Shown here piece after piece: positions 15,333 to 30,124 of a DNA stretch of 39,867 bases. The number at the start of each line of letters is the position of its first letter. The stretch's first letter is position 1. A program made the position numbers and the translations under genes. The notes beneath the pieces were generated by a model. It searched no databases. It was not told the origin of the DNA and saw only the letters and a program-made list of their open reading frames with translations. The stretch is from Calditrichota bacterium (GTDB lineage: Bacteria; Calditrichota; Calditrichia; Calditrichales; J004). Location of the stretch: positions 1 through 39,867 of the forward strand of contig RFFS01000115.1 of assembly GCA_003696775.1 (NCBI GenBank), given 5' to 3'.

Positions 15333-17510
15333 ATGCAAAGTACAATACTGTTTGCCATGGGGAGCGCTGTTCTTGCCCTGCTGTACGGTATCTACCGTTC
15401 TTCCTGGATCAATAAAAAAGAAATGGGCACGGACCATATGGCGTCGATTGCCGGTCATATTCGTGAAGGCGCCATGGCGTTTTTACGCGCCGAATATAAG
15501 GTGTTGATCGTTTTTGTAATCGTCGTGGCGGCCCTACTTGGTTTTTCCGCTGATCCGTCCAATTCATCATCGATGATCGCGGTGTCGTTTATCGTGGGCG
15601 CCTTTGCCTCGGCACTGGCCGGTAATATCGGCATGCGCGTGGCCACCAGCGCCAATGTGCGTACCACCAACGCGGCCCGCAAAGGTTTGGGGCAGGCTTT
15701 GGAAATCGCTTTTGCCGGTGGTTCCGTTATGGGGTTGGGTGTTGTCGGTTTCGGCGTTCTGGGGCTTTCCGTGTTGTTACTGTTGTATGAAAATATGTTT
15801 GGCATGGATGCCGAGGGCATCAATCGTGTATTAAGCGTGATCACCGGTTTTTCATTCGGTGCCTCTTCCATCGCTTTGTTTGCCCGTGTGGGGGGTGGTA
15901 TTTACACCAAAGCCGCCGATGTGGGCGCCGACCTGGTTGGTAAGGTGGAAGCTGGCATTCCCGAAGACCATCCGCTTAATCCGGCCACCATCGCGGATAA
16001 CGTGGGTGATAATGTGGGCGACGTGGCCGGCATGGGCGCGGACTTGTTTGAGTCTTATGTCGGTTCCATTATCGGCACCATGGTTTTGGGCGCGGTATTT
16101 CTGAACCTGCCGGAATTTAAGGAAGTCGGCATTCTGAATGGCGTGCTGCTGCCGCTGGTATTGGCCGCCACGGGTATCCTGACCTCGATCGCCGGTACAT
16201 TCTTTGTTAAAGTAAAAGAAGGCGGCGATCCGCAAAAAGCGTTGAATATCGGTGAATTCGGTTCATCGATCGTGATGGTCATTGCTTCTTACTTTATCAT
16301 CGTGCGCATGCTGCCCGCGGAATGGACATTGCATGGCGTGCACTATACCGCTTCCGGAGTCTTTTACGCCACCTTGTTTGGCCTGGTCGCCGGATTGTTC
16401 ATTGGCATGATCACCGAATTTTACACAGGTACCGGTAAAAAGCCGGTTATCAGCATCGCGCAACAGTCTGTAACCGGTTCCGCCACCAACATTATTGCCG
16501 GTCTGGGTGTGGGTATGTTATCCACCGCTTTGCCGATTGTCATCATTGCCGTGGCCATACTCGGCGCTTATAAATTTGCCGGACTGTATGGTATCGCCAT
16601 CGCCGCTGTGGGCATGTTGTCCAACACGGGTATTCAGTTGGCCGTGGACGCTTACGGTCCCATCTCCGACAATGCGGGCGGCATTGCCGAAATGTCCGAA
16701 TTGCCCTCCGAAGTGCGCGGGCGTACCGATAAGCTGGATGCCGTGGGTAACACCACCGCCGCAATCGGTAAAGGCTTTGCCATCGGTTCCGCCGCTTTAA
16801 CGGCCCTGGCCCTGTTCTCGGCTTTTATCGAATCGTACAATGCTACCCATGCCGAAAAACTGGGCGCGATCAATATTACCGATCCCAATGTGATGGCCGC
16901 ATTATTTGTGGGCGCCATGATGCCGTTTCTTTTCTCTGCCCTGGCGATGCAGGCCGTGGGCCGCGCCGCCATGTCCATGATTGAAGAAGTGCGCCGTCAG
17001 TTTAAATCGATTCCGGAATTGAAAGCCGCGTTAAGCGTGATGCAAAAGAACGACGGCAAAGAAATGGCTGACTGGAGCGATGATGACCGGAAGACATTTG
17101 AAGCGGCTAACGGAAAAGCCGAATATGGCAAATGCGTGGAAATATCGACTAAAGCGTCCATCCGCGAAATGATTTTACCCGGTCTGTTGGCGGTCATCGT
17201 GCCCGTGTTAGTGGGATTTTTCGGTGGCGCGACCATGTTGGGCGGATTGCTGGCCGGTGTGACCGCGGCCGGTGTGCTGATGGCTCTGTTCCAGTCCAAT
17301 GCCGGCGGTGCCTGGGATAACGCTAAAAAAATGATTGAAGAAGGCATCACCATTAAAGGTGAAAAATACGGAAAGGGTTCGGAGCCGCATAAAGCCGCGG
17401 TCGTCGGTGATACGGTGGGTGATCCGTTTAAAGATACATCCGGTCCGTCCCTGAATATTCTTATTAAACTTATGTCGGTGGTGGCGTTGGTTATCGCGCC
17501 GCTGCTTTAA
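15333..17510 (+). CDS. hppA: Membrane-bound cation-pumping pyrophosphatase
   Basis: 725 aa, multi-[122 protein letters not shown]. Confidence 0.95.
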
Positions 17511-17521
17511 ATTAAAATCCT

Positions 17522-17545
17522 ATCCCGGTTCATAACGGCCGGGAT
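17522..17545 (+). promoter_or_regulatory. Structured rpsF leader hairpin (candidate autoregulatory element)
   Basis: ATCCCG-GTT-CAT-AAC-(GGC bulge)-CGGGAT can fold as a bulged hairpin between hppA stop and rpsF SD; no U-tract follows, arguing against a terminator. Confidence 0.35.
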
Positions 17546-17566
17546 CATCAGACCAAAGGAGGTTAC

Positions 17567-18019
17567 ATGGCTATTTATGAAACGGTTGTCATTCTCGACA
17601 GCCTGCTTCCCCCCAAGGAGATCGATGACGCCGTGGAGCGTTTCTCTCAAATCATTAAAGAGAACGGCGGCACGGTACGCGTTGTTGATAAATGGGGCAA
17701 GCGACGTCTGGCTTACGAAATCCAGAAAAAACAATATGGATTTTACGTGGCCATCGAATTTGAAGGCGAAGGCAATATTCCCAAAGCCTTGCAAAGCGAA
17801 TACAATTACACCGATTCCGTGTTGCGTTATCTGACCTATCGCTATGACAAGCATAAGCTGAAGGCGATGGAAAAAGCGGGTAAGAATGTGGCGGAGGCCC
17901 CTGTAGTGGAAGAAAAACCAGCGAAAGCCGCGGAAGAATCCAAGCCCGTGGTGGAAGAACAAACTCCGGAAACCGCCACGGCGGAAGAAAGCAGCAAAGA
18001 GGAGGCGCAAAATGATTAA
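17567..18019 (+). CDS. rpsF: 30S ribosomal protein S6
   Basis: [74 protein letters not shown]; followed by rpsR. Confidence 0.94.
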
Positions 18020-18239
18020 GAATCGTAAAAAACGTAATTGTCCGTTTACCGAAGCCGGAATCGTCTATATCGATTTTAAAGATGAAAAATTGCTGAAGAA
18101 ATATCTGACCGAACAGGGTAAGATTATTCCGCGTCATACTTCCGGCGCTTCGGCTAAAATGCAACGCCAACTGGCCCGTGCCGTTAAACGCGCGCGTCAT
18201 CTGGCTCTGATCCCCTTTGTGGCTGACTTTACCCGCTAA
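18012..18239 (+). CDS. rpsR: 30S ribosomal protein S18
   Basis: [70 protein letters not shown]; overlaps rpsF by 8 nt. Confidence 0.95.
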
Positions 18240-18262
18240 ACTAAAATACGAGGAATACTCTC

Positions 18263-18706
18263 ATGAATATTATTTTGAGACAAGACTATCAGGGTTTGGG
18301 TGAAGCCGGTGAAGAAGTGAAAGTAAAAGACGGATTTGCCAGAAACTTTCTGATACCGCAAGGCATCGCTTTTTTGGCCAATGCCCAAAACCGCAAACGT
18401 TTTGAAAACGAACAAAAACAACGTTCCTGGAAACAGGAAAAAGAAAAACAACAGGCCGAAGAACTGGCTAAAAAGCTGGAAAACGTATCCTGCACCATCT
18501 CCGTTCAGGTGGGTGAAGACGATAAACTGTTCGGTTCGGTAACCGCGCAAAATATCGCGGACTCGCTTAAGGAGCAGGGTTTTGAAATGGATAAACGTAA
18601 AATCCTGCTGGATGAGCCCATCAAGGCATTGGGTATTTACACGGTAAATATCAAATTACATAAAGATGTGGAAGGCTCTGTTAAAGTTTGGGTTGTTAAA
18701 GAATAA
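18263..18706 (+). CDS. rplI: 50S ribosomal protein L9
   Basis: MNIILRQDYQGLGEAGEEVKVKDGFARNFLIPQGIAFLAN... plus VGEDDKLFGSVTAQNIADSL. Confidence 0.95.
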   Translation: MNIILRQDYQGLGEAGEEVKVKDGFARNFLIPQGIAFLANAQNRKRFENEQKQRSWKQEKEKQQAEELAKKLENVSCTISVQVGEDDKLFGSVTAQNIADSLKEQGFEMDKRKILLDEPIKALGIYTVNIKLHKDVEGSVKVWVVKE

Positions 18707-18715
18707 ACAAACGTT

Positions 18716-18755
18716 AAACGGACTGTTGCCTTTGTGCGGCAGTCCGTTTATTTTA
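18716..18755 (+). terminator. Probable intrinsic terminator after rplI
   Basis: AAACGGACTG...CAGTCCGTTT inverted repeat (18716-18725 / 18740-18749) followed by ATTTTAT. Confidence 0.6.
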
Positions 18756-18760
18756 TATCC

Positions 18761-21202
18761 ATGCGCTACGCCGAAGTTGTTTTCAACCTGCCTATCTATC
18801 ACGCCTTTACCTATCACATCCCCGAAGAATTTAACCATCTGACAACCGGATACCGGGTCCTGGTCCCCTTTGGGAAACGAACCCTGACCGGTATTGTAAC
18901 TTCCATAACCGAAAAAAGCCGGCTTACACAGGTTAAAAGCATTATGGATGTGCCGGATGACCATGCCCTGATCCGCCCCCGTGCCATGGAGCTGGCGGAA
19001 TGGATGGCACGCTATTACATGGCGCCGCGTGGTCAGGTGCTCCAATTATTCATTCCCAAAGGTCTGGATGCCCATGATGAAGAGCTTTTGCATCTTGTAG
19101 AAGAAATTCCGGATATCGATTTGAGTCCGCGACAAAAAGAACTCTATTTTCTGATTGGTGAAAATCCCGGCAAGAGTAAAACCTGGTATCGAAAAAAAAT
19201 GGGCACGGGATCGTTTTACGATGTGTTGCGGGTATTGCGTGAAAAGGGTCTGGTTTTTGTTGAAAAAAAACAACGCGGCGCCCGGGTCGGCGCGTTGATG
19301 CGCGATTTTGTCATTATACCGGAAGACTGGCGTGAACGTGCTGCCGGCGATGCGCATTATCAGAAATATCTGGAACGACGCCCCGCTGTACAATCCTTTT
19401 TGCAAACACATAGCGGGGAGGCGGTACTTGCTTCGGTATTCATCAAAGAGACGGGCATGGCGTACGGCACATTGCATAAAATGGTGGCACGCGGCCTGGT
19501 GGGCATGGAAAGCCGCTTGGTGGAGCGCCGGCCGGAAATGAACTATGAAGAAGAAGAAAAAAACATTATCCTTACGGCGGAACAACGTCATGTCGTGGAT
19601 ACGGTAACCGCCGGGCTGAACGAACAGGCGTATCGTTCCTATCTTTTGCACGGCATTACGGGTTCCGGAAAAACCGTGGTGTATATCGAAATTTTAAAAA
19701 AGGTGCTGGAAAGCGGCCGAAACGGCATCATTCTGATACCGGAAATTGCACTGACACCGCAAACCGTGAGCCGTTTCGAAAAAGCCTTTGACCGCCCCAT
19801 TGCCATTTTTCACAGCAAGATGTCCGCAGGGGAACGTTACGATGCCTGGCAGGCCTGTTACAAAGGGCAGGTGGCCATCGCCATCGGTCCCCGTTCGGCA
19901 TTGTTCGCGCCGCTGGACAATGTGGGGCTGATTGTGGTGGATGAGGAGCATGAACAAAGTTACAAGCAAACCGACAGCCCGCCGTCTTATAACGCGCGGG
20001 ATGTGGCTTTATACCTGGCCCGGATGCACAAGGCACGCGTGGTGTTGGGCTCGGCCACGCCCAGTTTTGAGTCGTATTACAACGCCCGGCAGGGTAAACA
20101 TATGCTGCTAACCATGACAACACGCGCCAACCAAAAAGCGCTGCCCCCCATCCATTTGGTGGATATGAGCAAGGAATACAGTTCGAAGGGACGGGTGTTG
20201 TTTTCCAAAACCCTGCTGGCCCACATGGACCGCCGCCTGGGACGGGGCGAACAAATCATTTTGCTTCAGAACCGGCGTGGGTACGCTGCGTTTCTGCAAT
20301 GCCTGCATTGTGGATTCATCCCCAAATGTCAGGATTGCGACGTAACCCTGACCTATCACACTTATGATCAGTCCTTGCGATGCCACTATTGCGGTTATAA
20401 AACACCCGCCCCGGCGCATTGCCCCAACTGCGGGGCGAAGGATTTGGACAAAAAAGGCGCCGGTACGCAAAAACTGCAGGAAGAGCTGGAACGCCTTTAT
20501 CCGGGTATGCCCGTTTTGCGCATGGATCAGGACACCACACGCGGAAAGAATAGCTATCAAAACATTCTGGATGCCTTTCGAAAAGGGGAAGCGCCGGTAT
20601 TGTTGGGCACTCAGATGATTTCGAAAGGCCTGGATTTTCCCAATGTGACCCTGGTGGGTGTGATTTCCGCCGATGTGGGGCTGGCTGTGCCCGATTTTCG
20701 CTCGGCGGAAAAAGTGTTCCAGTTGCTGGCTCAGGTGGCGGGGCGTTCCGGACGGGCGGAAAAAGACGGGGAAGTGGTGGTGCAAAGCTATCAGACGGAC
20801 CATTACGCCATCCGATACGCGCAAACCCATAATTTTACAGGATTTTACGAGGAAGAAATAAAACATCGTCAGACCTATAAATATCCGCCGTATTACCGAT
20901 TAGTGGTGATAACCGTAGCGGCGGCGGCGTTTAAGGACGCCATTAACATCAGCCGCGCCATAAGCTTGCCCCTGCGTAAATATTTACGGCCTTATGCCGA
21001 AGTGATCGGCCCGGCGCCAGCAGCATTGTCGCGTTTGCGAAACATGTTTCGTTGGCAGGTAACGGTAAAAATCGATCCGGCGCGGGATAAAACCGGTTCC
21101 AAAAGCAAACGCATCATCCAAGATGTGCTGGAAAGCAACCGGGATAGTAAAAATCATAACATCCGTATTATGGTGGATGTGGACCCCGTGTTTGCCGTTT
21201 AG
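18761..21202 (+). CDS. priA: Primosomal protein N' (replication restart helicase)
   Basis: LLHGITGSGKTVVYIE, IVVDEEHEQSYKQ, VVLGSATPSFES, zinc-binding CLHCGFIPKCQDC...CHYCG...CPNCG, LLGTQMISKGLDFPNVTLVGVISADVGL, AGRSGRAEKDGEVVVQSY. Confidence 0.95.
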   Translation: MRYAEVVFNLPIYHAFTYHIPEEFNHLTTGYRVLVPFGKRTLTGIVTSITEKSRLTQVKSIMDVPDDHALIRPRAMELAEWMARYYMAPRGQVLQLFIPKGLDAHDEELLHLVEEIPDIDLSPRQKELYFLIGENPGKSKTWYRKKMGTGSFYDVLRVLREKGLVFVEKKQRGARVGALMRDFVIIPEDWRERAAGDAHYQKYLERRPAVQSFLQTHSGEAVLASVFIKETGMAYGTLHKMVARGLVGMESRLVERRPEMNYEEEEKNIILTAEQRHVVDTVTAGLNEQAYRSYLLHGITGSGKTVVYIEILKKVLESGRNGIILIPEIALTPQTVSRFEKAFDRPIAIFHSKMSAGERYDAWQACYKGQVAIAIGPRSALFAPLDNVGLIVVDEEHEQSYKQTDSPPSYNARDVALYLARMHKARVVLGSATPSFESYYNARQGKHMLLTMTTRANQKALPPIHLVDMSKEYSSKGRVLFSKTLLAHMDRRLGRGEQIILLQNRRGYAAFLQCLHCGFIPKCQDCDVTLTYHTYDQSLRCHYCGYKTPAPAHCPNCGAKDLDKKGAGTQKLQEELERLYPGMPVLRMDQDTTRGKNSYQNILDAFRKGEAPVLLGTQMISKGLDFPNVTLVGVISADVGLAVPDFRSAEKVFQLLAQVAGRSGRAEKDGEVVVQSYQTDHYAIRYAQTHNFTGFYEEEIKHRQTYKYPPYYRLVVITVAAAAFKDAINISRAISLPLRKYLRPYAEVIGPAPAALSRLRNMFRWQVTVKIDPARDKTGSKSKRIIQDVLESNRDSKNHNIRIMVDVDPVFAV

Positions 21203-21252: not shown

Positions 21253-22488
21253 ATGAGTAAATATCTCGACGAACAAAAAGAAAATATCAAACGCGTCAAT
21301 AAATTGGTGGATGATCTGAGTCAGGCGGATGATCTGCGTGAAAAGTTGAAAACAACCCGTGAAAAATATAACCGCCTGTTGGAACGCTATGAAAAACTGG
21401 ACAAAGTGTTTCAGTTTCATAAAGGCATTGTCCAAAACCTTTCCAGCGGGATCATCACCACCGATATGAAGGGGCATATTACCTTTCTGAATAAATCCGC
21501 CCTGCAATTGCTGGCTTATACGGACAAGGATATCCTCGGTAAGCCCATGGAGTACCTGTTCGCCGATTCGGAGCAGGCCGCGCGGATTTACAAAAGGGTG
21601 TTTGAACAGCAGGATATGTATGAAAGCAAGGAAATCAATTTAAAAGATGCCAGGGGCGCCCTGATCCCCATCGGTTTTAGCACAACATTATTTCGACATG
21701 GATCCACGCAGGAAGGTGTGGTGTTTATTTTCCGTGACATCCGGGAACAGATCAATTTCCGCCGTCAGATGGGGCGCATGGATCGACTGGCCACATTGGG
21801 CGAACTGGCCGCCGGTCTGGCGCATGAGATACGCAATCCGCTGGCCGGGATCAAAACATCGTCCGAAGTATTGCTGGAAAGTTTAAGTCCCGGCGATTTC
21901 CGAACGGAATTTATCAAACGCATCATCCAGGAAATTGACCGATCCAATGGCTTGTTGCAACGTTTTTTTAATTTTGCCAAACCCAGCCGTCCCAAGCCCG
22001 GTTTTCACAATCTGGTAAATATCGTGGACAGTGTGTTCGTCTTGTTACGTTCGAGATTGCTGAAACGCAATATAGAGTTTGAGCGAACATTTGAGCAGGA
22101 TGCCGTCCATATTTATATTGATGAATATCAATTTGAACAAGTGTTGCTGAATTTGTTCCTGAATGCGATGGACGCCATGCCCGATGGCGGCATTATCCGT
22201 ATGCATGCCTGTCTGGAACCGGCTTATACATTTGAAGGCCGGGAAGAAAAAGGCGCCGTGGTGATCCGGGTGGAAGATAACGGACACGGTATCCCGCCGG
22301 AGAAAATAGAAAACATCTTTCTGCCCTTTTACACCACAAAAAGCGACGGCGTGGGCCTGGGGCTTTCCATATGCACCCGTTTGATGGATGAAAATTCAGG
22401 TAAGCTGGAAGTTCAGTCCAAATTGGGAGAAGGAACGGTTTTCTCACTCTATTTACCTTATGTAAAAAACATTCAACAGGAGTCTTAA
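21253..22488 (+). CDS. Cytoplasmic PAS-domain sensor histidine kinase
   Basis: Coiled coil then PAS (IVQNLSSGIITTDMKGHITFLNKSALQLLAYTDKDILGKPMEYLF), H-box GELAAGLAHEIRNPLAGIKTSSEVL, N-box LLNLFLNAMDAMPDGG, G-boxes VEDNGHGIPPEKIENIFLPFYTTKSDGVGLGLSICTRL. No TM segment. TTG 21232 is an alternative start. Confidence 0.92.
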   Translation: MSKYLDEQKENIKRVNKLVDDLSQADDLREKLKTTREKYNRLLERYEKLDKVFQFHKGIVQNLSSGIITTDMKGHITFLNKSALQLLAYTDKDILGKPMEYLFADSEQAARIYKRVFEQQDMYESKEINLKDARGALIPIGFSTTLFRHGSTQEGVVFIFRDIREQINFRRQMGRMDRLATLGELAAGLAHEIRNPLAGIKTSSEVLLESLSPGDFRTEFIKRIIQEIDRSNGLLQRFFNFAKPSRPKPGFHNLVNIVDSVFVLLRSRLLKRNIEFERTFEQDAVHIYIDEYQFEQVLLNLFLNAMDAMPDGGIIRMHACLEPAYTFEGREEKGAVVIRVEDNGHGIPPEKIENIFLPFYTTKSDGVGLGLSICTRLMDENSGKLEVQSKLGEGTVFSLYLPYVKNIQQES

Positions 22489-22853
22489 TGGCCCGGCGAT
22501 TATTGATAGTTGATGATGAAGAAACCATTCGGTTTAGTTTATGTCAGAGTTTTATCATCGCGAAAAAGGACTACGAAGTAGCCATGGCCGCTTCCGGAGA
22601 GGAAGCGCTGGAGCGTATGACGGAAAAACCGTATGATCTTATCATTACGGATATTTTTATGCCCGGTATCAGCGGGCTGGATTTGCTCCAAATGGTGAAG
22701 GAAAAATATCCGGAAACCGAAGTGATTGTCATAACTGCGTACGGTTCCGATGATAAAAAAGATGAGGCCGCCAGGCTGGGCGCGCGTTACTATGTGGAAA
22801 AACCGTTTGAGATTAAAGAAATACGGCAAAAAGTTTTTGACCTGTTAGGATAG
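22488..22853 (+). CDS. Stand-alone receiver-domain response regulator (CheY-like)
   Basis: LLIVDDEETIR, DLIITDIFMPGISGLDLLQ, VIVITAYGS, YYVEKPFEIKEI; only the receiver domain; TAATG overlap with the kinase. Confidence 0.93.
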   Translation: MARRLLIVDDEETIRFSLCQSFIIAKKDYEVAMAASGEEALERMTEKPYDLIITDIFMPGISGLDLLQMVKEKYPETEVIVITAYGSDDKKDEAARLGARYYVEKPFEIKEIRQKVFDLLG

Positions 22854-22854
22854 T

Positions 22855-23502
22855 ATGGCACTGATCGGAAATTTAAAGGATATCAAATTACCCAGTTTGA
22901 TCCAGTTAAACTGTATGGAGCACAACACGGCCAAATTAACCATCGAACGCGCCGGTAAATTCGGCTTTATCTATTTTGAAAACGGGCAGGTTACCCACGC
23001 GGAATACGATCCCTTTTTAGGCGAAGAAGCCGTTTACCGGTTGTTAAGCCTGATCGACGGACGGTTTAAAGTGGAAAGCGATGTCCGGCCGCCGGTACGC
23101 ACCATACATACCAATTGGAGCAACCTTTTGCTGGAGGGCATGCATAAGCTGGATCATGCCCAGGATGATGCCGACAACATCTATTTCCAAATGTTCGAGC
23201 GGCTGCTGACCATCCGCGGCATCACATCGGCCTGGGTGATGAACGCCAATGGTGAAATGCTGGCCGGCACGGATACGGAAGTTCCCGAACGGGCGCTCAA
23301 TATTCCATTCATTGTACTGCAGGTGAAGCGGCTGGCCGAGCCGTATGCCGATAACAGATTGGAATTCATTAGCATGTTACTGAATAACGCGCGCCTGTTG
23401 ATAACCCCGTATCATAATGAAATTTTAGCCATAACCCTGGAAAAAAAAGTGAAAAGCGACACCGTTATTCCTCTGGTAAAACAGGCGGTAGGGAAAATAT
23501 AG
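22855..23502 (+). CDS. DUF4388 (PATAN-like) protein with C-terminal roadblock-like region
   Basis: GNLKDIKLPSLIQLNCMEHNTAKLTIERAGKFGFIYFENGQVTHAEYDPFLGEEAVYRLLSLIDGRFKVE is DUF4388-like; C-terminal GITSAWVMNANGEMLAGTDT...EILAITLEKKVKSDTVIPLVKQAV resembles Roadblock/LC7. Confidence 0.72.
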   Translation: MALIGNLKDIKLPSLIQLNCMEHNTAKLTIERAGKFGFIYFENGQVTHAEYDPFLGEEAVYRLLSLIDGRFKVESDVRPPVRTIHTNWSNLLLEGMHKLDHAQDDADNIYFQMFERLLTIRGITSAWVMNANGEMLAGTDTEVPERALNIPFIVLQVKRLAEPYADNRLEFISMLLNNARLLITPYHNEILAITLEKKVKSDTVIPLVKQAVGKI

Positions 23503-23503
23503 C

Positions 23504-23938
23504 ATGATCGAACGTTGGTTTCAGGAGATACAGAATATCCCATCGGTAAAGGGCAGTTTTATTACCACCATGCGCGGAACGGTAATGGGCAAGCATGGCA
23601 TAAAGGAAAGCGACCGCCAACTGCAAAATATGGCGCTGCGTATTTTAAGAATCCATGCCCTGATGCATCAGTCCGGAAATAAATTGTCGGAAATCGAGCT
23701 TTACTGGAACCATCTGCTTATCATAGGTAAAATTTCTCAAAACGCTCTATTGGTAACCATCTGTGAAGACGCGCATGTCATATCGCTGTTACGGATAACA
23801 ATGAATGTAAGCCTGTCGCATATTCTTCAGGAAAAAAAGATAAGCAAGAAAGTCCGCAGCCATGCCACCGATCCCGGACATTTACTTAAAAAGGGAACGT
23901 TCGACGAAGAAGAGCGGGCTTTGTTGGCGCAAAAATAA
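23504..23938 (+). CDS. Roadblock/LC7-like protein
   Basis: LKSRP-like regulator pattern: NIPSVKGSFITTMRGTVMGKHG...ALRILRIHALMHQSGNKLSEIELYWNHLLIIGKISQNALLVTICEDAHVISLLRITMNVSLSHIL. Confidence 0.55.
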   Translation: MIERWFQEIQNIPSVKGSFITTMRGTVMGKHGIKESDRQLQNMALRILRIHALMHQSGNKLSEIELYWNHLLIIGKISQNALLVTICEDAHVISLLRITMNVSLSHILQEKKISKKVRSHATDPGHLLKKGTFDEEERALLAQK

Positions 23939-23959
23939 AACAGATAAAGGAAAGAGCAT

Positions 23960-24448
23960 TTGGCCGGTAAACCGAGAAAATTTATAGCGCAGCCTCATGT
24001 GATATATAAGAAATCCGAAATCAAATCGGCATCCGGGCTCAATCTGCGTTCGGCGGAATGGGCCGTTTTGACGCAGGTGAACGGCATCCAGAGCATAGAG
24101 GAAATTGCCCAGGTTCTGGCGATGACGGCCAAGGAAGTGGCGCACATCATGTATAACCTTTACACACACGGCCTCATTGATGTGGCCCAACTGGAAAAAA
24201 CGGAAAAACATTTTGTTGAAAGTGAATTTTTTGATATTCTGCAACAAAAGCTGATGAGTGTAATTGGCCCCGTGGCGCCCTATGTGATTGATGACACCAT
24301 CCAGGATATGGAAGAAGATAAACGCAAATTCCCGCCCGAACGCATAGCCGAATTAATCGAATTGATTAGTGAAGAAATCAGCGATGAAGTTAAAAAAGTT
24401 GCCTTTCAATCCGAGATGTTGCAATATTTGAAAAAGAAGCTCATCTGA
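23960..24448 (+). CDS. Winged-helix-like (PqqD/DUF8082-like) protein
   Basis: LRSAEWAVLTQVNGIQSIEEIAQVLAMTAKEVAHIMYNLYTHGLIDVAQ reads as a small wHTH; C-terminal helical region. TTG start with upstream AAAGGAAAG. Confidence 0.5.
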   Translation: MAGKPRKFIAQPHVIYKKSEIKSASGLNLRSAEWAVLTQVNGIQSIEEIAQVLAMTAKEVAHIMYNLYTHGLIDVAQLEKTEKHFVESEFFDILQQKLMSVIGPVAPYVIDDTIQDMEEDKRKFPPERIAELIELISEEISDEVKKVAFQSEMLQYLKKKLI

Positions 24449-24490
24449 ACTAACCAATAAAATAAAACTAATCCGGTGAAATAATACGTT

Positions 24491-25228
24491 ATGCGATTAA
24501 GTTTAAGATGGAAGATCAGCGGTATCCTTGTGATCAGCAACCTTGTGCTGGGTGTGGCTTTGGTGTTAATTATCAATTCCACCGTTGCCCGGCGCATCGA
24601 AAAGGAAATGATTGAACGGGGAAGGGCCCTGGGCCACAATCTGGCGCAATCGGCTTCGGAGCAGATTTTAAGCGAAGATTCGTTTGGCCTGAAGCAGATC
24701 ATCACCAAGGCCTTAAGTTTTGAAAGCGTGGAATATATCCTTATCCAAAACAGTGACAAGGAAGTGCTGGCCGAAACTTTTAACGGGCAAATGCCGGCCT
24801 CATTAAAAGAATTGTTGCCGCAAACGGATCAAAATATCCATAATCTTGTTTTGGAAGAAGGCAATATACGGTGTTGCGATATTGTGGTGCCGGTGGAAGA
24901 AGGCTACCTCGGGTTCATCCGTATAGGAATGAAACAGGCTTATATCGATGAGGCCATCGCCGAAATTAACATTTTAATTATCGCCATTATCGGCGGCATT
25001 ACGCTGGTTGGCATATTAGTTGTATTATTTCTGGCGAATCGCATAATCAATCCGATTATTTATTTAACGGAAAAAGCAAATGAAATCAGTCAGGGACAAA
25101 TTGATGAGTCCATACAGGTCTCCACAAGGGATGAAATACAAGACCTGGCCGAGGCATTGGAGCGTTTGCGCGAAAGTGTGAAAATCGCGTTGGGGCGCTT
25201 AAAGAAACGGCAAACGACGCAAATTTAA
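24491..25228 (+). CDS. HAMP-domain membrane sensor without recognisable output domain
   Basis: N-terminal TM, periplasmic sensor region, second TM (ILIIAIIGGITLVGILVVLFLA), HAMP (NRIINPIIYLTEKANEISQGQIDESIQVSTRDEIQDLAEALERLRESV), then ends. Confidence 0.82.
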   Translation: MRLSLRWKISGILVISNLVLGVALVLIINSTVARRIEKEMIERGRALGHNLAQSASEQILSEDSFGLKQIITKALSFESVEYILIQNSDKEVLAETFNGQMPASLKELLPQTDQNIHNLVLEEGNIRCCDIVVPVEEGYLGFIRIGMKQAYIDEAIAEINILIIAIIGGITLVGILVVLFLANRIINPIIYLTEKANEISQGQIDESIQVSTRDEIQDLAEALERLRESVKIALGRLKKRQTTQI

Positions 25229-25264
25229 AATATTTGACATATCACCAAATCAGTGGGGTTTTTT

Positions 25265-25777
25265 ATGGTACAAACAAGAAAGCTAAAGGACGGCAGCCGT
25301 CAGGTTATTCTGAATGGTGCCCAGTATGACGGGATTACCCGTGTTTTATCCGAACTGGCTAACAAAACAAAGGCTTCGGCGATCTTATTTGCCGATATGA
25401 GCGGCCAGTTGATCAGTCAACGTGGCAACACGGAAAATATGAACACCACGGTGCTTTCCGCCCTGGCGGCCAGTGACTTTGCCGCTACATCGGAAATGGC
25501 CAAGCTGGTGGGCGAAGAAGCCAAATTTAAATTGTTGTTTCACGAAGGTGAAAAACGCAACGTATATCTGTCCAATGTGGGAGATTCCTTTTTTCTGGTG
25601 GTGGTTTTTGATGTGAGCGTCACCCTGGGGCTTATCCGCATTGATACCAAAAAAGCCATTGAAGACCTCAATACCATTTTGGAAGATGATTCTCAGGCGG
25701 CCGGTGAAGAAGATAAACTCATCGATTCCGATTTTAGCAGCCTTTTAGGGGACGCTTTGGATGATACTTTTAAATAA
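25265..25777 (+). CDS. Roadblock/LC7 (MglB-like) protein
   Basis: GITRVLSELANKTKASAILFADMSGQLISQRG...LSALAASDFAATSEMAKLVGE...LFHEGEKRNVYLSNVGDSFFLVVVFDVSVTLGLIRIDTKKAIEDL. Confidence 0.78.
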   Translation: MVQTRKLKDGSRQVILNGAQYDGITRVLSELANKTKASAILFADMSGQLISQRGNTENMNTTVLSALAASDFAATSEMAKLVGEEAKFKLLFHEGEKRNVYLSNVGDSFFLVVVFDVSVTLGLIRIDTKKAIEDLNTILEDDSQAAGEEDKLIDSDFSSLLGDALDDTFK

Positions 25778-25819
25778 AATGTGTATATTGCGTATTAATT
25801 CGAATAAACGAGGCGACGA

Positions 25820-26404
25820 ATGTTTATAAATTGGGCATTACAGGAGATCAATCTTAAAATTGTATATTACGGACCCGGGATGAGCGGTAAAACCAGTAAT
25901 CTGGAATACATCCACTCAAAACTGGACCCTTCGCTTACCGGTGAACTGGTTTCCCTGAAAACCAAAGAAGACCGTACCATCTTTTTTGATTTTATGCAAA
26001 TTGAAGTGGGTAAAATCAAAGGAAAAAAACCGAAATTCAATTTGTACACGGTTCCCGGACAGGTTTATTACGCATCCAGCCGAAAAGTCATTCTGAACGG
26101 TGTCGATGGGATTGTATTCGTGGCTGATTCGCAACCCCACCGGATGGAAGCCAACATCGAGACCCTTCTGGACCTGGAAAGCAACCTGAAAGCGGACGGT
26201 CATTCCCTGGAAAGTTTCCCGTGGGTCATTCAATATAATAAAAGAGACCTGCCGGGCGTGGAGTCCGTGGATGTACTGCAAAAGAAACTGAATTTTTTCG
26301 ACGTGCCTTCCTTTGAAGGTGTGGCGGTGAAAGGGGAAGGTGTGTTCAACACCCTGAAATCCGTCATCAATCTTGTTGTACAAAACGTGCAAGATCAATT
26401 ATAG
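25820..26404 (+). CDS. mglA: MglA-like small Ras-family GTPase
   Basis: P-loop GPGMSGKTSNL, MglA-type TVPGQVYYASSRKVILNGVDGIVFVADSQ, N-K-x-D QYNKRDLP. Confidence 0.9.
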   Translation: MFINWALQEINLKIVYYGPGMSGKTSNLEYIHSKLDPSLTGELVSLKTKEDRTIFFDFMQIEVGKIKGKKPKFNLYTVPGQVYYASSRKVILNGVDGIVFVADSQPHRMEANIETLLDLESNLKADGHSLESFPWVIQYNKRDLPGVESVDVLQKKLNFFDVPSFEGVAVKGEGVFNTLKSVINLVVQNVQDQL

Positions 26405-26410
26405 CTAAGC

Positions 26411-26434
26411 GGCTGCTTCCGGGCAGCCTTTTTT
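26411..26434 (+). terminator. Rho-independent terminator closing the kinase-roadblock-MglA cluster
   Basis: GGCTGC-TTCCGG-GCAGCC followed by TTTTTT. Confidence 0.88.
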
Positions 26435-26438
26435 GTTT

Positions 26439-27758
26439 ATGGTAAACATGTCAAACGCATCCCGGTCCGCCCCAAACAATCGTAAGGAAATCTTTGCCTG
26501 GGCCTTGTATGATTTCGCCAATACCTCTTTCAGCGTTATTGTGGTCACCGTGGTGTTTGCCGTCTATTTTCGAGATTACATTGTTGGTGATACGCCTGTG
26601 CATCTGTTGGGACTGCACAAAAACGCCGGGGACGTTCTGTGGAGCATGGCCGGTTCCTTATCCATGTTTCTGGTGGCAGTTACCAGTCCCTTTCTCGGCG
26701 CCGCGGCCGATTATTCCAACCGTAAAAAACGTTTTGTCTTTTTCTATTCCGTATTATGCATTCTGAGCACGGCCCTGCTATATATGCCCCGACACGGCAT
26801 GATCTGGAGCGCCATGGCGCTGTTTGTTTTGGCGAATTTCGGATTTGAGGGGTCGCTGGTTTTTTATAATGCCTTTTTACCTAAAATCGCCACACAGGAA
26901 ACCATTGGTAAGGTTTCCGGCTCCGGATTCGCCTTTGGCTATGTGGGCGCACTAGTCAGTTTGATGATCGCTTTGTATTACGCCAATCAGGCCAGGGTAT
27001 TGGGGGATATCACCGCCATGGCTCCCTCTTTTATATGGGCGGCGCTTTTCTTTTTTGTCTTTTCGCTTCCCTTTTATTTTTGGGTACACGAACCCCCGTT
27101 GATTATCGAACGGAAAAATATCAACTACGCGCGTATCGGTTGGTTGCGCACGGTGGAAACGGTCAAAAAATTAAAGCATCTTCCCCAGTTAACACGCTTT
27201 TTGGCCGCTTATTTTATTTATATCGACGGGGTGAACACGGTGATGTTTTTCGGCGCCTTGTTCGCCACGCAAACCCTTGGTTTTTCCATGGTGGAAGTGA
27301 TCATCTTTTTTGCGATTACCCAGTTGGCTGCCATGGGCGGCGCATACTTTCTGGGCAGTCTCAGCGACCGCATCGGCCCCAAACCGACGGTCAACATCAC
27401 ATTGTTAATGTGGATTGGAGTGACCATTGGCGCCTTTTTTTCTTATGACGCCGTTACCTTTTATATCGTGGGCATGATCGCCGGCGCGGCCATGGGCGCT
27501 TCGCAGGCGGCCAGCCGTGTATTAATGGCCCATTTTATCCCCTCCGGCATGGAAGCGGAGTTTTACGGTTTTTATGCCATGATGGGGAAATTTTCCGCTA
27601 TTCTCGGTCCGCTGGTTTTTGGATTTATTTCCGGTACCACCGGTTCCCAACGTTTGGCGGTCTTATCCATTTCGCTCTTTTTTATAACCGGCTATTTACT
27701 GTTAAGGCGTGTGGATACACGCGTCGATTATAAGTCTATCAAGCTCTCATCCGTGTAG
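26439..27758 (+). CDS. MFS transporter, UMF1/Atg22-like
   Basis: EIFAWALYDFANTSFSVIVVTVVFAVYFRDYIV N-terminus typical of the UMF1 family; ~12 TM segments; LGAAADYSNRKKR loop. Confidence 0.85.
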   Translation: MVNMSNASRSAPNNRKEIFAWALYDFANTSFSVIVVTVVFAVYFRDYIVGDTPVHLLGLHKNAGDVLWSMAGSLSMFLVAVTSPFLGAAADYSNRKKRFVFFYSVLCILSTALLYMPRHGMIWSAMALFVLANFGFEGSLVFYNAFLPKIATQETIGKVSGSGFAFGYVGALVSLMIALYYANQARVLGDITAMAPSFIWAALFFFVFSLPFYFWVHEPPLIIERKNINYARIGWLRTVETVKKLKHLPQLTRFLAAYFIYIDGVNTVMFFGALFATQTLGFSMVEVIIFFAITQLAAMGGAYFLGSLSDRIGPKPTVNITLLMWIGVTIGAFFSYDAVTFYIVGMIAGAAMGASQAASRVLMAHFIPSGMEAEFYGFYAMMGKFSAILGPLVFGFISGTTGSQRLAVLSISLFFITGYLLLRRVDTRVDYKSIKLSSV

Positions 27759-27776
27759 CAGGCGGAAGCCGCCGTC

Positions 27777-28712
27777 ATGAAGAAATTATTGTTAAACCCG
27801 GGTAAAATATTTAAATTCGCGATTCTGTTTGGCGCCCTTTTATACGGCAGTGTGCAGGCCCGAAACAGTGTAACTATGCTGGATGATAAACTGGTTATCC
27901 ACTTTGATGACCGGCATCGGAAACTGGTGAATGAACTGGAACGGGCTACCCGGCAACGGCGCCAAAAAATGTATGCTTTTTTTGACGCCCGCGATACCAC
28001 GCCCGTGCAAATTTATCTGACCCGTTTCGAGGCGACCTATCGGAAGCTGGTGGAAAAAGGGATACCGGAGTGGGCGCAGGCGGTCGCCATTCCCGAGCGA
28101 CGGTTCATTGTAATCAAAGTAACCAACGCGGAAGAAATACGTCGCCTGCCGCAGGTGTTTTTGCATGAGCTGGCCCACGTATATCTGCATGATTACGCGG
28201 TTAGCGCCATACCCGTCTGGCTGCACGAAGGCGTGGCGCAATGGCTGAGCATGGAACAACTTTCCCCGGATGAAAAACTGCGCATCGGAAATGCCCTGGC
28301 TGCTAATCGGCTGATTGACTTTGAAGCCATGGACAGCCTGCTTGCCTTTCCGGCGGGCAAAGCCGGTCTGGCTTACGACCTGGCCTATACCGCGGTGGAA
28401 TTTTTAACCCGTCAATACGGCGTTAGCGGGCTGCGTGGACTGTTGCATCAATGGCAAGCCGGTCAGAGTTATGATGCAAATTTTATGCGGATTGTAGGCC
28501 GGGATTTTATCGATTTTGAAGTGAGCTGGTACGCCTGGCTGGAAAAACAATACCGTTGGATGGTTTTGCTCAACGTGGAAAACCTGGTACTGTTGGCTTT
28601 TGTGGTGTTGTTCGCGCTGGCCCTGGCCAGGCTGAAATGGCGCAATCATAAAAAAAAGGCGCAATGGCAACGGGAAGATCAATTCATGGATGATGAAAAG
28701 GAGCCTGAATAA
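27777..28712 (+). CDS. Peptidase MA-like (gluzincin) metallohydrolase with C-terminal TM anchor
   Basis: Signal peptide; VFLHELAHVYLHDY...PVWLHEGVAQWLS (HExxH...E); C-terminal TM VENLVLLAFVVLFALALARLKW. Confidence 0.8.
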   Translation: MKKLLLNPGKIFKFAILFGALLYGSVQARNSVTMLDDKLVIHFDDRHRKLVNELERATRQRRQKMYAFFDARDTTPVQIYLTRFEATYRKLVEKGIPEWAQAVAIPERRFIVIKVTNAEEIRRLPQVFLHELAHVYLHDYAVSAIPVWLHEGVAQWLSMEQLSPDEKLRIGNALAANRLIDFEAMDSLLAFPAGKAGLAYDLAYTAVEFLTRQYGVSGLRGLLHQWQAGQSYDANFMRIVGRDFIDFEVSWYAWLEKQYRWMVLLNVENLVLLAFVVLFALALARLKWRNHKKKAQWQREDQFMDDEKEPE

Positions 28713-29257
28713 TGTATGTACCCAAAAAAATCTTTTTTACACGCGGACTCGGTATTCATAAGGAAAAACTGACCAGTTTCGAGCTGGCATTGCGTAACGC
28801 GGGTATCGCGCCGTTTAACCTGGTGGGCGTGTCCAGTATTTACCCGGCCGGCTGCGTGATCGTCGATCGCGATGAAGGCCTGAGGGAATTGATTCCGGGG
28901 CAAATTGTACACGCCGTGTACAGTAAAATCGAAACCAATGAACCTCATCGTTTGATCGCCTCATCCATAGGCATGGCGCGACCGCGGGATGAAAATGCCT
29001 ACGGCTATCTGAGTGAGCATCACGGCTATGGGGAAACAGAAGAACAATCCGGCAATTACGCCCAAGACCTGGCGGCGGAAATGCTGGCCACCATTCTCGG
29101 TGTGGAGTTTGACCCGGACTCGTCCTGGGATGAGAAACGGCAAATCTGGACCATATCCAATAAAATTGTGGAAACACGCAACATCACCCAGGCCGCGCGC
29201 GGGGACGCTGCCGGACGCTGGACGACGGTTGTTACGGCGGCCATTTTGCTGCCTTAG
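28712..29257 (+). CDS. Pyruvoyl-dependent arginine decarboxylase
   Basis: PKKIFFTRGLGIHKEKLTSFELALRNAGIAPFNLVGVSSIYPAGC...EPHRLIASSIGMARP...GYLSEHHGYGET; VSS self-cleavage motif. Confidence 0.92.
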   Translation: MYVPKKIFFTRGLGIHKEKLTSFELALRNAGIAPFNLVGVSSIYPAGCVIVDRDEGLRELIPGQIVHAVYSKIETNEPHRLIASSIGMARPRDENAYGYLSEHHGYGETEEQSGNYAQDLAAEMLATILGVEFDPDSSWDEKRQIWTISNKIVETRNITQAARGDAAGRWTTVVTAAILLP

Positions 29258-29260
29258 GAT

Positions 29261-30124
29261 ATGCGCGCCATGTCTGCCTTTTTTTTAGGGGAAGAAACCC
29301 GCGATACAAGCTATGAACAGGCGCGGGCGGTTGTACTGCCGATACCGTACGAAAAAACAACCAGTTACGGTAGCGGGACGGCGCGAGGGCCCCAAGCTAT
29401 TATCGAAGCCTCTGCTTACGTGGAACTTTATGATGAGGTGTATGAGACCGAAGTCTGGCGGCAGGGTATTTATACCGATACCGCGCCGGTTTTTACCGGT
29501 GAGACCGAACAGGATTTTGATATCCTTGCCGACCGTGTGGACAAGCATTTGAAAAATGGAAAATTCGTCGTTTCCCTGGGCGGGGAACACGCCATAAGCT
29601 ATCCACTGGTTAAAGCTTTTCGGCATCACTATCCGGATTTGACGGTCATCCAGTTTGACGCCCATTCCGATTTGAGAGACAGCTATGAGGGCAGCATCTA
29701 TTCTCACGCCTCGGTAATGAAGCGGCTTTACGACAGCGGTATAGCATTCCGGCAAATCGGCATCCGTTCCCAATGCGTGGAAGAAGCGCGGTTGATACGC
29801 GAGCAGAACCTGGCCACATTGTACGCACACCATACGCAGAGCCACTGGCGTGATTTCCTTTCGGATATCCGTGGCAATGTCTATATTACCTTTGATGTGG
29901 ATTTTTGGGACCCGTCCCTGATGCCCGCCACCGGCACTCCGGAACCCGGCGGATTTTTTTGGGATGAAACCATGGCCATGTTGGCCTTCATCTTTAGCCG
30001 TGCCCGGGTGGTGGGGTGTGATGTGGTGGAACTTAGTCCGGTGGCGGATTGGCACCACCCGGATTTTACCACCGCCAAACTGGTATATAAAATGATCACT
30101 CTAAAACTGAAAGACTCACTGTAA
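29261..30124 (+). CDS. speB: Agmatinase
   Basis: SLGGEHAISYPLVKAF, VIQFDAHSDLRDSYEGSIYSHASVMKRL, VYITFDVDFWDPSLMPATGTPEPGGFFWDE: ureohydrolase Mn-binding motifs; adjacent to arginine decarboxylase. Confidence 0.92.
   Translation: MRAMSAFFLGEETRDTSYEQARAVVLPIPYEKTTSYGSGTARGPQAIIEASAYVELYDEVYETEVWRQGIYTDTAPVFTGETEQDFDILADRVDKHLKNGKFVVSLGGEHAISYPLVKAFRHHYPDLTVIQFDAHSDLRDSYEGSIYSHASVMKRLYDSGIAFRQIGIRSQCVEEARLIREQNLATLYAHHTQSHWRDFLSDIRGNVYITFDVDFWDPSLMPATGTPEPGGFFWDETMAMLAFIFSRARVVGCDVVELSPVADWHHPDFTTAKLVYKMITLKLKDSL

What the first reader, a model, noticed from the sequence alone, without database searches (positions are those of the whole stretch)
21253..26434. Conservon-like two-component / roadblock / MglA GTPase operon
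Seen: eight co-directional, closely packed ORFs (first four nearly abutting; TAATG at kinase/receiver) ending in a strong terminator at 26411-26434. The order is soluble PAS histidine kinase, receiver-only regulator, DUF4388+roadblock-like, roadblock-like, winged-helix-like, HAMP membrane sensor, roadblock/MglB-like, MglA-like GTPase. Established: Streptomyces conservons encode histidine kinase-like (CvnA), roadblock (CvnB), DUF742 winged-helix (CvnC) and GTPase (CvnD), and MglB roadblock proteins are GAPs for MglA. Inference: this is an analogous membrane-to-GTPase signalling module in an FCB-type bacterium, in which phosphorelay and GTPase state are coupled. The three roadblock-like domains could act as alternative MglA regulators or scaffolds.
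Basis: partly seen in the sequence, partly recalled or inferred. Interest (0 to 1): 0.82.

Follow-up and report, generated by a model that had tools for sequence, protein, structure and literature searches.

The report
Eight-gene bacterial Ras-like GTPase signalling operon
A fixed block of eight genes, found in every Calditrichota genome where it could be read end to end, appears to wire two sensors (a soluble kinase relay and a membrane receptor with no output part of its own) to a Ras-like GTPase switch, and it suggests what such receptors talk to.

Summary
In detail: eight co-directional ORFs at 21253-26404, then an intrinsic terminator. The order is conserved in all 32 fetched Calditrichota loci long enough to show it; 12 of 34 also carry a ninth gene, a PATAN protein. 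Three roadblock domains and a winged helix are supported by profiles and, for ORF 23504, by a confident AlphaFold model. It is not a conservon: MglA is Wuichet Group 1 (intrinsic Arg finger, TVPGQ; conservons are Group 2), the kinase is soluble, there is a receiver, and no DUF742 was matched. New here: the C-terminus of the 'winged-helix' ORF is a STAC domain (GPxA motif; an enriched profile ranks Af1502/5A1Q first in the PDB, E=5.5e-4). The next gene is a receptor that ends at HAMP with no effector, the Af1502/Af1503 pairing known from archaea. The same pairing occurs in 6 of 7 other families carrying the domain. In other phyla receiver, PATAN and roadblock are fused, and STAC is fused to PATAN or roadblock. 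Best model: a kinase relay and a HAMP receptor converge on roadblock scaffolds that tune MglB/MglA. Type IV pili as output is inference. No interaction or activity has been tested.

The parts
21253..22488 (+). Soluble PAS sensor histidine kinase (PAS-HisKA-HATPase_c, 411 aa)
   Evidence: Pfam PAS_9 1e-11, HisKA 2e-15, HATPase_c 1e-23; no hydrophobic segment; H191, N304, D342 and G-box glycines invariant in 33 sequences
22488..22853 (+). Receiver-only response regulator (121 aa)
   Evidence: Response_reg 5e-30; D9, D10, phospho-acceptor D55, T83, K105 invariant in 33; fused to PATAN-roadblock in L142 and L177
22855..23502 (+). PATAN (DUF4388, 22855-23160) plus roadblock domain (about 23191-23433), 215 aa
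   Evidence: DUF4388 7e-22, Robl_LC7 0.017; family profile matches dynein roadblock chains, best E 6.5e-4, at positions 104-191
23504..23938 (+). Second roadblock protein (RBL2, 144 aa)
   Evidence: Robl_LC7 in 11 of 30 orthologues, best 6e-5; profile vs PDB roadblock 2e-5; vs MglB hhalign prob 90.5; AF2 pLDDT 91.6, Foldseek hits MglB 6hjm, TMt up to 0.77
23960..24208 (+). Winged-helix domain of the wHTH-STAC protein (TTG start)
   Evidence: weak wHTH hits POLR3C_WHD 3e-5, DnaD_N 3e-5, TFIIE_alpha 5e-5; AF2 helix/strand order fits a winged helix
24209..24448 (+). STAC domain of the wHTH-STAC protein, GP motif invariant
   Evidence: profile A10 vs PDB: Af1502 (5a1q) first, E 5.5e-4; Foldseek 5a1q prob 0.96, TMt 0.65, but E 0.45; published LGPx(x)A signature
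24491..25228 (+). Effectorless receptor: TM, sCache_3_2, TM, HAMP, end (245 aa)
   Evidence: HAMP 1e-11 at 180-230, sCache_3_2 2e-6 at 34-159, just below its curated cut-off; hydrophobic stretches 7-36 and 150-193; 15 residues after HAMP
25265..25777 (+). MglB, roadblock GAP homologue (170 aa)
   Evidence: Robl_LC7 3e-12; M. xanthus MglB 5e-24 in PDB; mean pairwise identity 0.81 in the class
25820..26404 (+). MglA, Group 1 Ras-like GTPase (194 aa)
   Evidence: M. xanthus MglA 5e-67 in PDB; P-loop, Arg52 finger, T53 and TVPGQ invariant in 34, NKRD in 33 with one truncated; the only MglA in its genome
26411..26434 (+). Intrinsic terminator closing the operon
   Evidence: GGCTGCTTCCGGGCAGCC TTTTTT; comparable hairpin in 26 of 34 relatives

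Best explanation
The block is one operon encoding a two-input regulatory module for a Group 1 MglA/MglB GTPase switch. Input 1: the soluble PAS kinase phosphorylates the receiver-only regulator, which acts on the PATAN-roadblock protein. Input 2: the sCache-HAMP membrane receptor, which has no output domain, signals to the STAC domain of the winged-helix protein encoded next to it. Both inputs meet in a complex built from roadblock domains (PATAN-roadblock, RBL2, MglB) that changes MglB GAP activity or nucleotide exchange on MglA. MglA-GTP then acts on a cell-pole machine, most likely type IV pili. Shown: gene content, order, operon-like packing, domain identity, intact catalytic residues, fusions in other phyla. 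Inferred: every physical interaction, the direction of signalling, and the output.
For: Eight-gene order intact in all spanning Calditrichota loci, with tight or overlapping genes and a shared terminator. Kinase, receiver and MglA catalytic residues invariant. Fusions elsewhere join the same parts: receiver-PATAN-roadblock (L142, L177), PATAN-wHTH-STAC (L097, L099, L100, L118), PATAN-STAC (L166, L167), roadblock-STAC (L142, L168, L169, L177). STAC assignment: profile E 5.5e-4 to Af1502 as top PDB hit, GP motif invariant, fold match. STAC genes outside Calditrichota and its sister lineage sit near a receptor that ends 0-8 residues after HAMP in 9 of 14 loci and 6 of 7 families, against 2 of 40 control MglA loci. 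MglA Group 1 signature. Own genome has a type IV pilus cluster with PilT, secretin, PilO and pilins. Published precedent: MglA is regulated by the receiver protein RomR with RomX and by RomY acting through MglB; PATAN regulators act on type IV pili.
Against: No interaction, phosphotransfer or GTPase assay. The sister lineage (L099, L118) keeps seven genes but no adjacent kinase, so input 1 may be replaceable. Some MAGs have the operon but no convincing PilB/PilT hit (G012 94%, G023 92% complete), so pili are not proven as output. STAC rests on one solved relative, and its profile became significant only after adding distant members. The loci counted for STAC-receptor pairing are not independent. 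Mean identity of RBL2 (0.29) and wHTH-STAC (0.38) is low against MglA (0.88), which fits adaptor roles but also loose constraint.
Confidence: 0.66

Rival explanations
1. A true conservon (actinobacterial G protein system) shared with or moved into Calditrichota: membrane kinase, roadblock, DUF742, GTPase.
For: Kinase, roadblock, winged-helix-like protein and GTPase are all encoded together, as in CvnA-D.
Against: Group 1 GTPase signature, not Group 2; soluble kinase; LPxR tail in 1 of 33 kinases; receiver present; no DUF742 match.
Confidence: 0.04
2. Two functionally separate units that only travel together: a two-component/PATAN/roadblock unit (first four genes, nearly abutting) and a receptor/MglB/MglA unit.
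For: Gaps grow from 1 bp to 21-42 bp after the fourth gene in the window; MglB/MglA are far more conserved than the rest; most MglA loci elsewhere lack the extra genes.
Against: Order never breaks in 32 Calditrichota loci; in nine-gene loci genes overlap across the proposed border; fusions join parts of both halves: roadblock-STAC, PATAN-STAC, and receiver-PATAN-roadblock near MglA.
Confidence: 0.17
3. The winged-helix protein is a DNA-binding output, so the operon is mainly a transcriptional switch, as suggested for Group 3 MglA systems with a receiver-like/wHTH protein.
For: Winged-helix profile hits; Group 3 precedent.
Against: Hits are to many unrelated winged helices, at or below curated cut-offs; the best fold matches, all with E above 0.001, are chains of SEA/GATOR1-KICSTOR complexes, which regulate Rag GTPases; the domain is joined to STAC and PATAN, both thought to be protein-interaction modules.
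Confidence: 0.13

Closest known systems
Group 1 MglA/MglB polarity module of Myxococcus xanthus with RomR/RomX, MglC and RomY (PMC4316618, PMC9481161, PMC12719032)
   Same: Group 1 MglA with Arg finger and TVPGQ, MglB roadblock GAP, accessory MglB partners, and a receiver protein feeding in
   Different: In M. xanthus mglA is not located near the genes of its response-regulator partners; here all candidates are in one operon. No RomX or RomY was recognised here; PATAN-roadblock, wHTH-STAC and an effectorless receptor are added
Group 1/5 MglA genes with PATAN neighbours (Makarova 2006; PMC4316618)
   Same: PATAN genes beside MglA/MglB
   Different: Reported as occasional in otherwise variable neighbourhoods; here a fixed 8-9 gene order across a phylum with STAC and receptor
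Af1502/Af1503 STAC-receptor pair of Archaeoglobus (PDB 5A1Q; PMC4834066)
   Same: STAC domain encoded next to a sensor-TM-HAMP receptor that lacks an effector; GPx(x)A motif
   Different: There a stand-alone archaeal STAC linked to transport genes; here bacterial, STAC attached to a winged helix, PATAN or roadblock and linked to a Ras-like GTPase
Streptomyces conservons / actinobacterial G protein systems
   Same: kinase, roadblock, small protein and GTPase in one operon
   Different: Group 2 GTPase, membrane kinase with LPxR tail, DUF742, no receiver

Membership tests
Group 1 MglA (Wuichet and Sogaard-Andersen) | Arg finger next to the G2 threonine and TVPGQ in G3 | tested here: met
   R52, T53, T77 and Q81 invariant in 34 sequences
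Group 1 MglA (Wuichet and Sogaard-Andersen) | Coupled MglB roadblock protein | tested here: met
   mglB directly upstream with a 42 bp gap, PDB MglB 5e-24; GAP activity not tested
Conservon (CvnA-D) | Group 2 GTPase (GTPGQ, no Arg finger) | tested here: not met
Conservon (CvnA-D) | Membrane histidine kinase with C-terminal LPxR | tested here: not met
   no hydrophobic segment; LPxR in 1 of 33
Conservon (CvnA-D) | DUF742 CvnC protein | tested here: not met
   no DUF742 match for the window protein at E up to 1, nor among the 25 commonest families of 31 orthologues
Conservon (CvnA-D) | No response regulator in the locus | tested here: not met
   receiver at 22488-22853
STAC domain | 60-90 aa helical domain with LGPx(x)A motif | tested here: met
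   GP invariant, then V/I/M and usually A. The model has three helices, the first long, where Af1502 has two hairpins
STAC domain | Sequence or fold similarity to Af1502 (5A1Q) | tested here: met
   E 5.5e-4, top PDB hit; Foldseek prob 0.96 but E 0.45
STAC domain | Genomic coupling to an effectorless HAMP receptor | tested here: met
   adjacent in all Calditrichota loci; 6 of 7 other families
Roadblock/LC7 (RBL2, ORF 23504) | Roadblock fold | tested here: met
Roadblock/LC7 (C-terminus of the DUF4388 protein) | Roadblock domain | tested here: met
   profile E 6.5e-4 to dynein roadblock; no structure modelled
RomR/RomX-type GEF or RomY-type co-GAP | GEF or GAP-stimulating activity on MglA | not testable with these tools
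   needs biochemistry

The most novel reading that the evidence does not exclude
A membrane receptor that ends at HAMP, with no kinase, cyclase or chemotaxis output, controls a Ras-like GTPase through a STAC-winged-helix adaptor and roadblock scaffold. That would be a general answer to what effectorless (Af1503-like) receptors signal to, and a bacterial receptor-to-small-GTPase route that bypasses phosphotransfer.
Probability: 0.4. Interest if true: 0.82.

Novelty: new variant of a known kind. Interest (0 to 1): 0.66.

Why it matters
MglA/MglB control of cell polarity is known mainly from Myxococcus, Thermus and Bdellovibrio; in the papers read, mglA in Myxococcus and Bdellovibrio is not near the genes of its response-regulator partners, and Group 1 neighbourhoods are called variable. 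A phylum with the whole candidate parts list in one conserved operon makes it possible to reconstitute the switch. The STAC link gives effectorless HAMP receptors a concrete, testable partner and ties them to roadblock-domain GTPase regulators. Among the papers listed by a search for STAC with MglA, roadblock or PATAN, none mentions STAC.

Tried and rejected
Conservon membership: rejected on the tested features. Transcription-factor reading of the winged-helix ORF: kept as a rival only. Direct profile match of the PATAN-roadblock C-terminus to MglB: hhalign gave no meaningful hit; dynein roadblock chains did match. The A9 STAC profile alone gave Af1502 only E 0.1; it became significant after adding distant members. 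Promoter scan: 12 sites against 12.1 by chance, uninformative. Papers on Caldithrix with MglA, or DUF4388 with roadblock: none found.
Full report
Observation. The eight ORFs are present, co-directional and closely packed (gaps -1, 1, 1, 21, 42, 36, 42 bp), and a GC-rich hairpin with a T-run follows mglA. In this region such sites are hardly more frequent than in shuffled sequence (11 against 9.1), so the terminator rests on comparison: 26 of 34 relatives have a hairpin plus T-run within about 120 bp of the mglA stop, although its sequence has diverged. The MglB start is most likely ATG 25265, as conservation shows.

Conservation. The window belongs to Calditrichota: named records that carry the block are mostly Calditrichia/Calditrichota MAGs, with some labelled only 'bacterium' or otherwise. 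In the fetched loci of this phylum the eight genes keep their order in all 32 whose contig spans them, and all 41 held genomes of the phylum carry the winged-helix gene. Twelve of the 34 fetched loci have a ninth gene between the DUF4388 gene and the second roadblock gene, a PATAN protein of about 340 aa (10 of 12 match DUF4388); the window lacks it, and its patchy presence across families suggests repeated loss (inference). Flanking priA is present in some families only. MglA (mean identity 0.88) and MglB (0.81) are far more conserved than the receiver (0.62), kinase (0.47), PATAN-roadblock (0.43), receptor (0.42), wHTH-STAC (0.38) and RBL2 (0.29).

Domains. The kinase is soluble, with PAS, HisKA and HATPase; its catalytic residues and those of the receiver are invariant in 33 sequences. 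ORF 22855 is PATAN plus a roadblock domain. ORF 23504 is a roadblock protein by profile and by AlphaFold model (pLDDT 91.6; Foldseek to MglB 6hjm, TMt up to 0.77). MglA matches M. xanthus MglA at 5e-67 and has the Group 1 marks, the Arg finger beside the G2 threonine and TVPGQ. It is the only MglA in its genome, and the Pfam roadblock model finds only two proteins there, both of this operon.

STAC. The last 79 residues of ORF 23960 carry an invariant GP followed by V/I/M and usually A. Foldseek of the AlphaFold model lists Af1502 (5a1q) with probability 0.96 and TMt 0.65, although its E-value is 0.45. The profile from Calditrichota (with one sister-lineage member) gives Af1502 E 0.1, in register on the motif. 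The same profile finds this domain in other genomes; adding those members makes Af1502 the top PDB hit at 5.5e-4, the next at 0.07. Af1502 defines the STAC domain, whose signature is LGPx(x)A and which is encoded next to Af1503-like receptors that end at HAMP without an effector (PMC4834066). In the window the next gene is just such a receptor: TM, sCache, TM, HAMP, 15 residues, stop.

Outside the phylum. A sister lineage (L097-L100, L118) has receiver, PATAN-roadblock, RBL2, PATAN-wHTH-STAC, receptor, MglB and MglA, without an adjacent kinase; the shorter contigs show only part of it. Another genome (L119) has a PATAN protein, receptor, MglB and MglA. Two genomes (L142, L177) carry a receiver-PATAN-roadblock fusion, a roadblock-STAC fusion, further roadblock proteins, an effectorless receptor and MglA. 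Elsewhere STAC is fused to PATAN (L166, L167) or roadblock (L168, L169). In 14 STAC loci outside Calditrichota and its sister lineage 9 have an effectorless receptor nearby (6 of 7 families), against 2 of 40 control MglA loci (Fisher p 1.7e-5, not corrected for relatedness). PATAN profiles hit 5 of the 40 control MglA loci, in keeping with the published 'occasionally'.

Mechanism. The fusions suggest that the receiver acts on PATAN-roadblock, and that STAC passes the receptor's state to PATAN/roadblock proteins. Regulators of this kind act on MglA in Myxococcus: MglB is its GAP, RomY stimulates MglB, and RomR/RomX promotes exchange (PMC9481161). The likely reading is a two-input module on a Group 1 MglA switch. 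For output, the genome has a type IV pilus cluster with a PilB-like ATPase, pilins, PilO, secretin and PilT, MglA drives pili in Myxococcus, and PATAN regulators act on pili in cyanobacteria. A few MAGs with the operon lack detectable PilB/PilT, so this step is weak. No interaction or activity has been shown.

Comparison. Conservon membership fails on the GTPase group, kinase topology, LPxR tail, DUF742 and the presence of a receiver. It is a new variant of the Group 1 MglA/MglB module, with a receptor-STAC input not described with MglA in the papers read.

Noticed in passing
window 28712-30124: Pyruvoyl-dependent arginine decarboxylase followed directly by an arginase-family gene: a likely polyamine pair downstream of the MglA operon.
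   Followed up: partly
window 26433-28712: ATG22-like MFS transporter and a peptidase-MA family protein follow the terminator; both recur downstream in many Calditrichota relatives.
   Followed up: partly
window 15333-21202: Membrane H+-pyrophosphatase, ribosomal proteins S6 and L9 and PriA lie upstream of the block.
   Followed up: partly
L176:5634-7025: A protein whose start resembles a Ser/Thr kinase carries two tandem STAC-like domains (0.003 and 4e-8), with an effectorless HAMP receptor gene nearby on the opposite strand.
   Followed up: no
L048 (G011): mglA is interrupted by an in-frame TAG (119 aa ORF) in one relative; sequencing error or pseudogene not resolved.
   Followed up: no
L034 (G005): The kinase gene is split into two ORFs (154 and 239 aa) in one relative; frameshift or assembly error not resolved.
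   Followed up: no
L164 (own genome, contig C51): Type IV pilus cluster: PilB-like ATPase, prepilin peptidase-like, PilC-like, pilins, PilO, secretin, PilT.
   Followed up: partly
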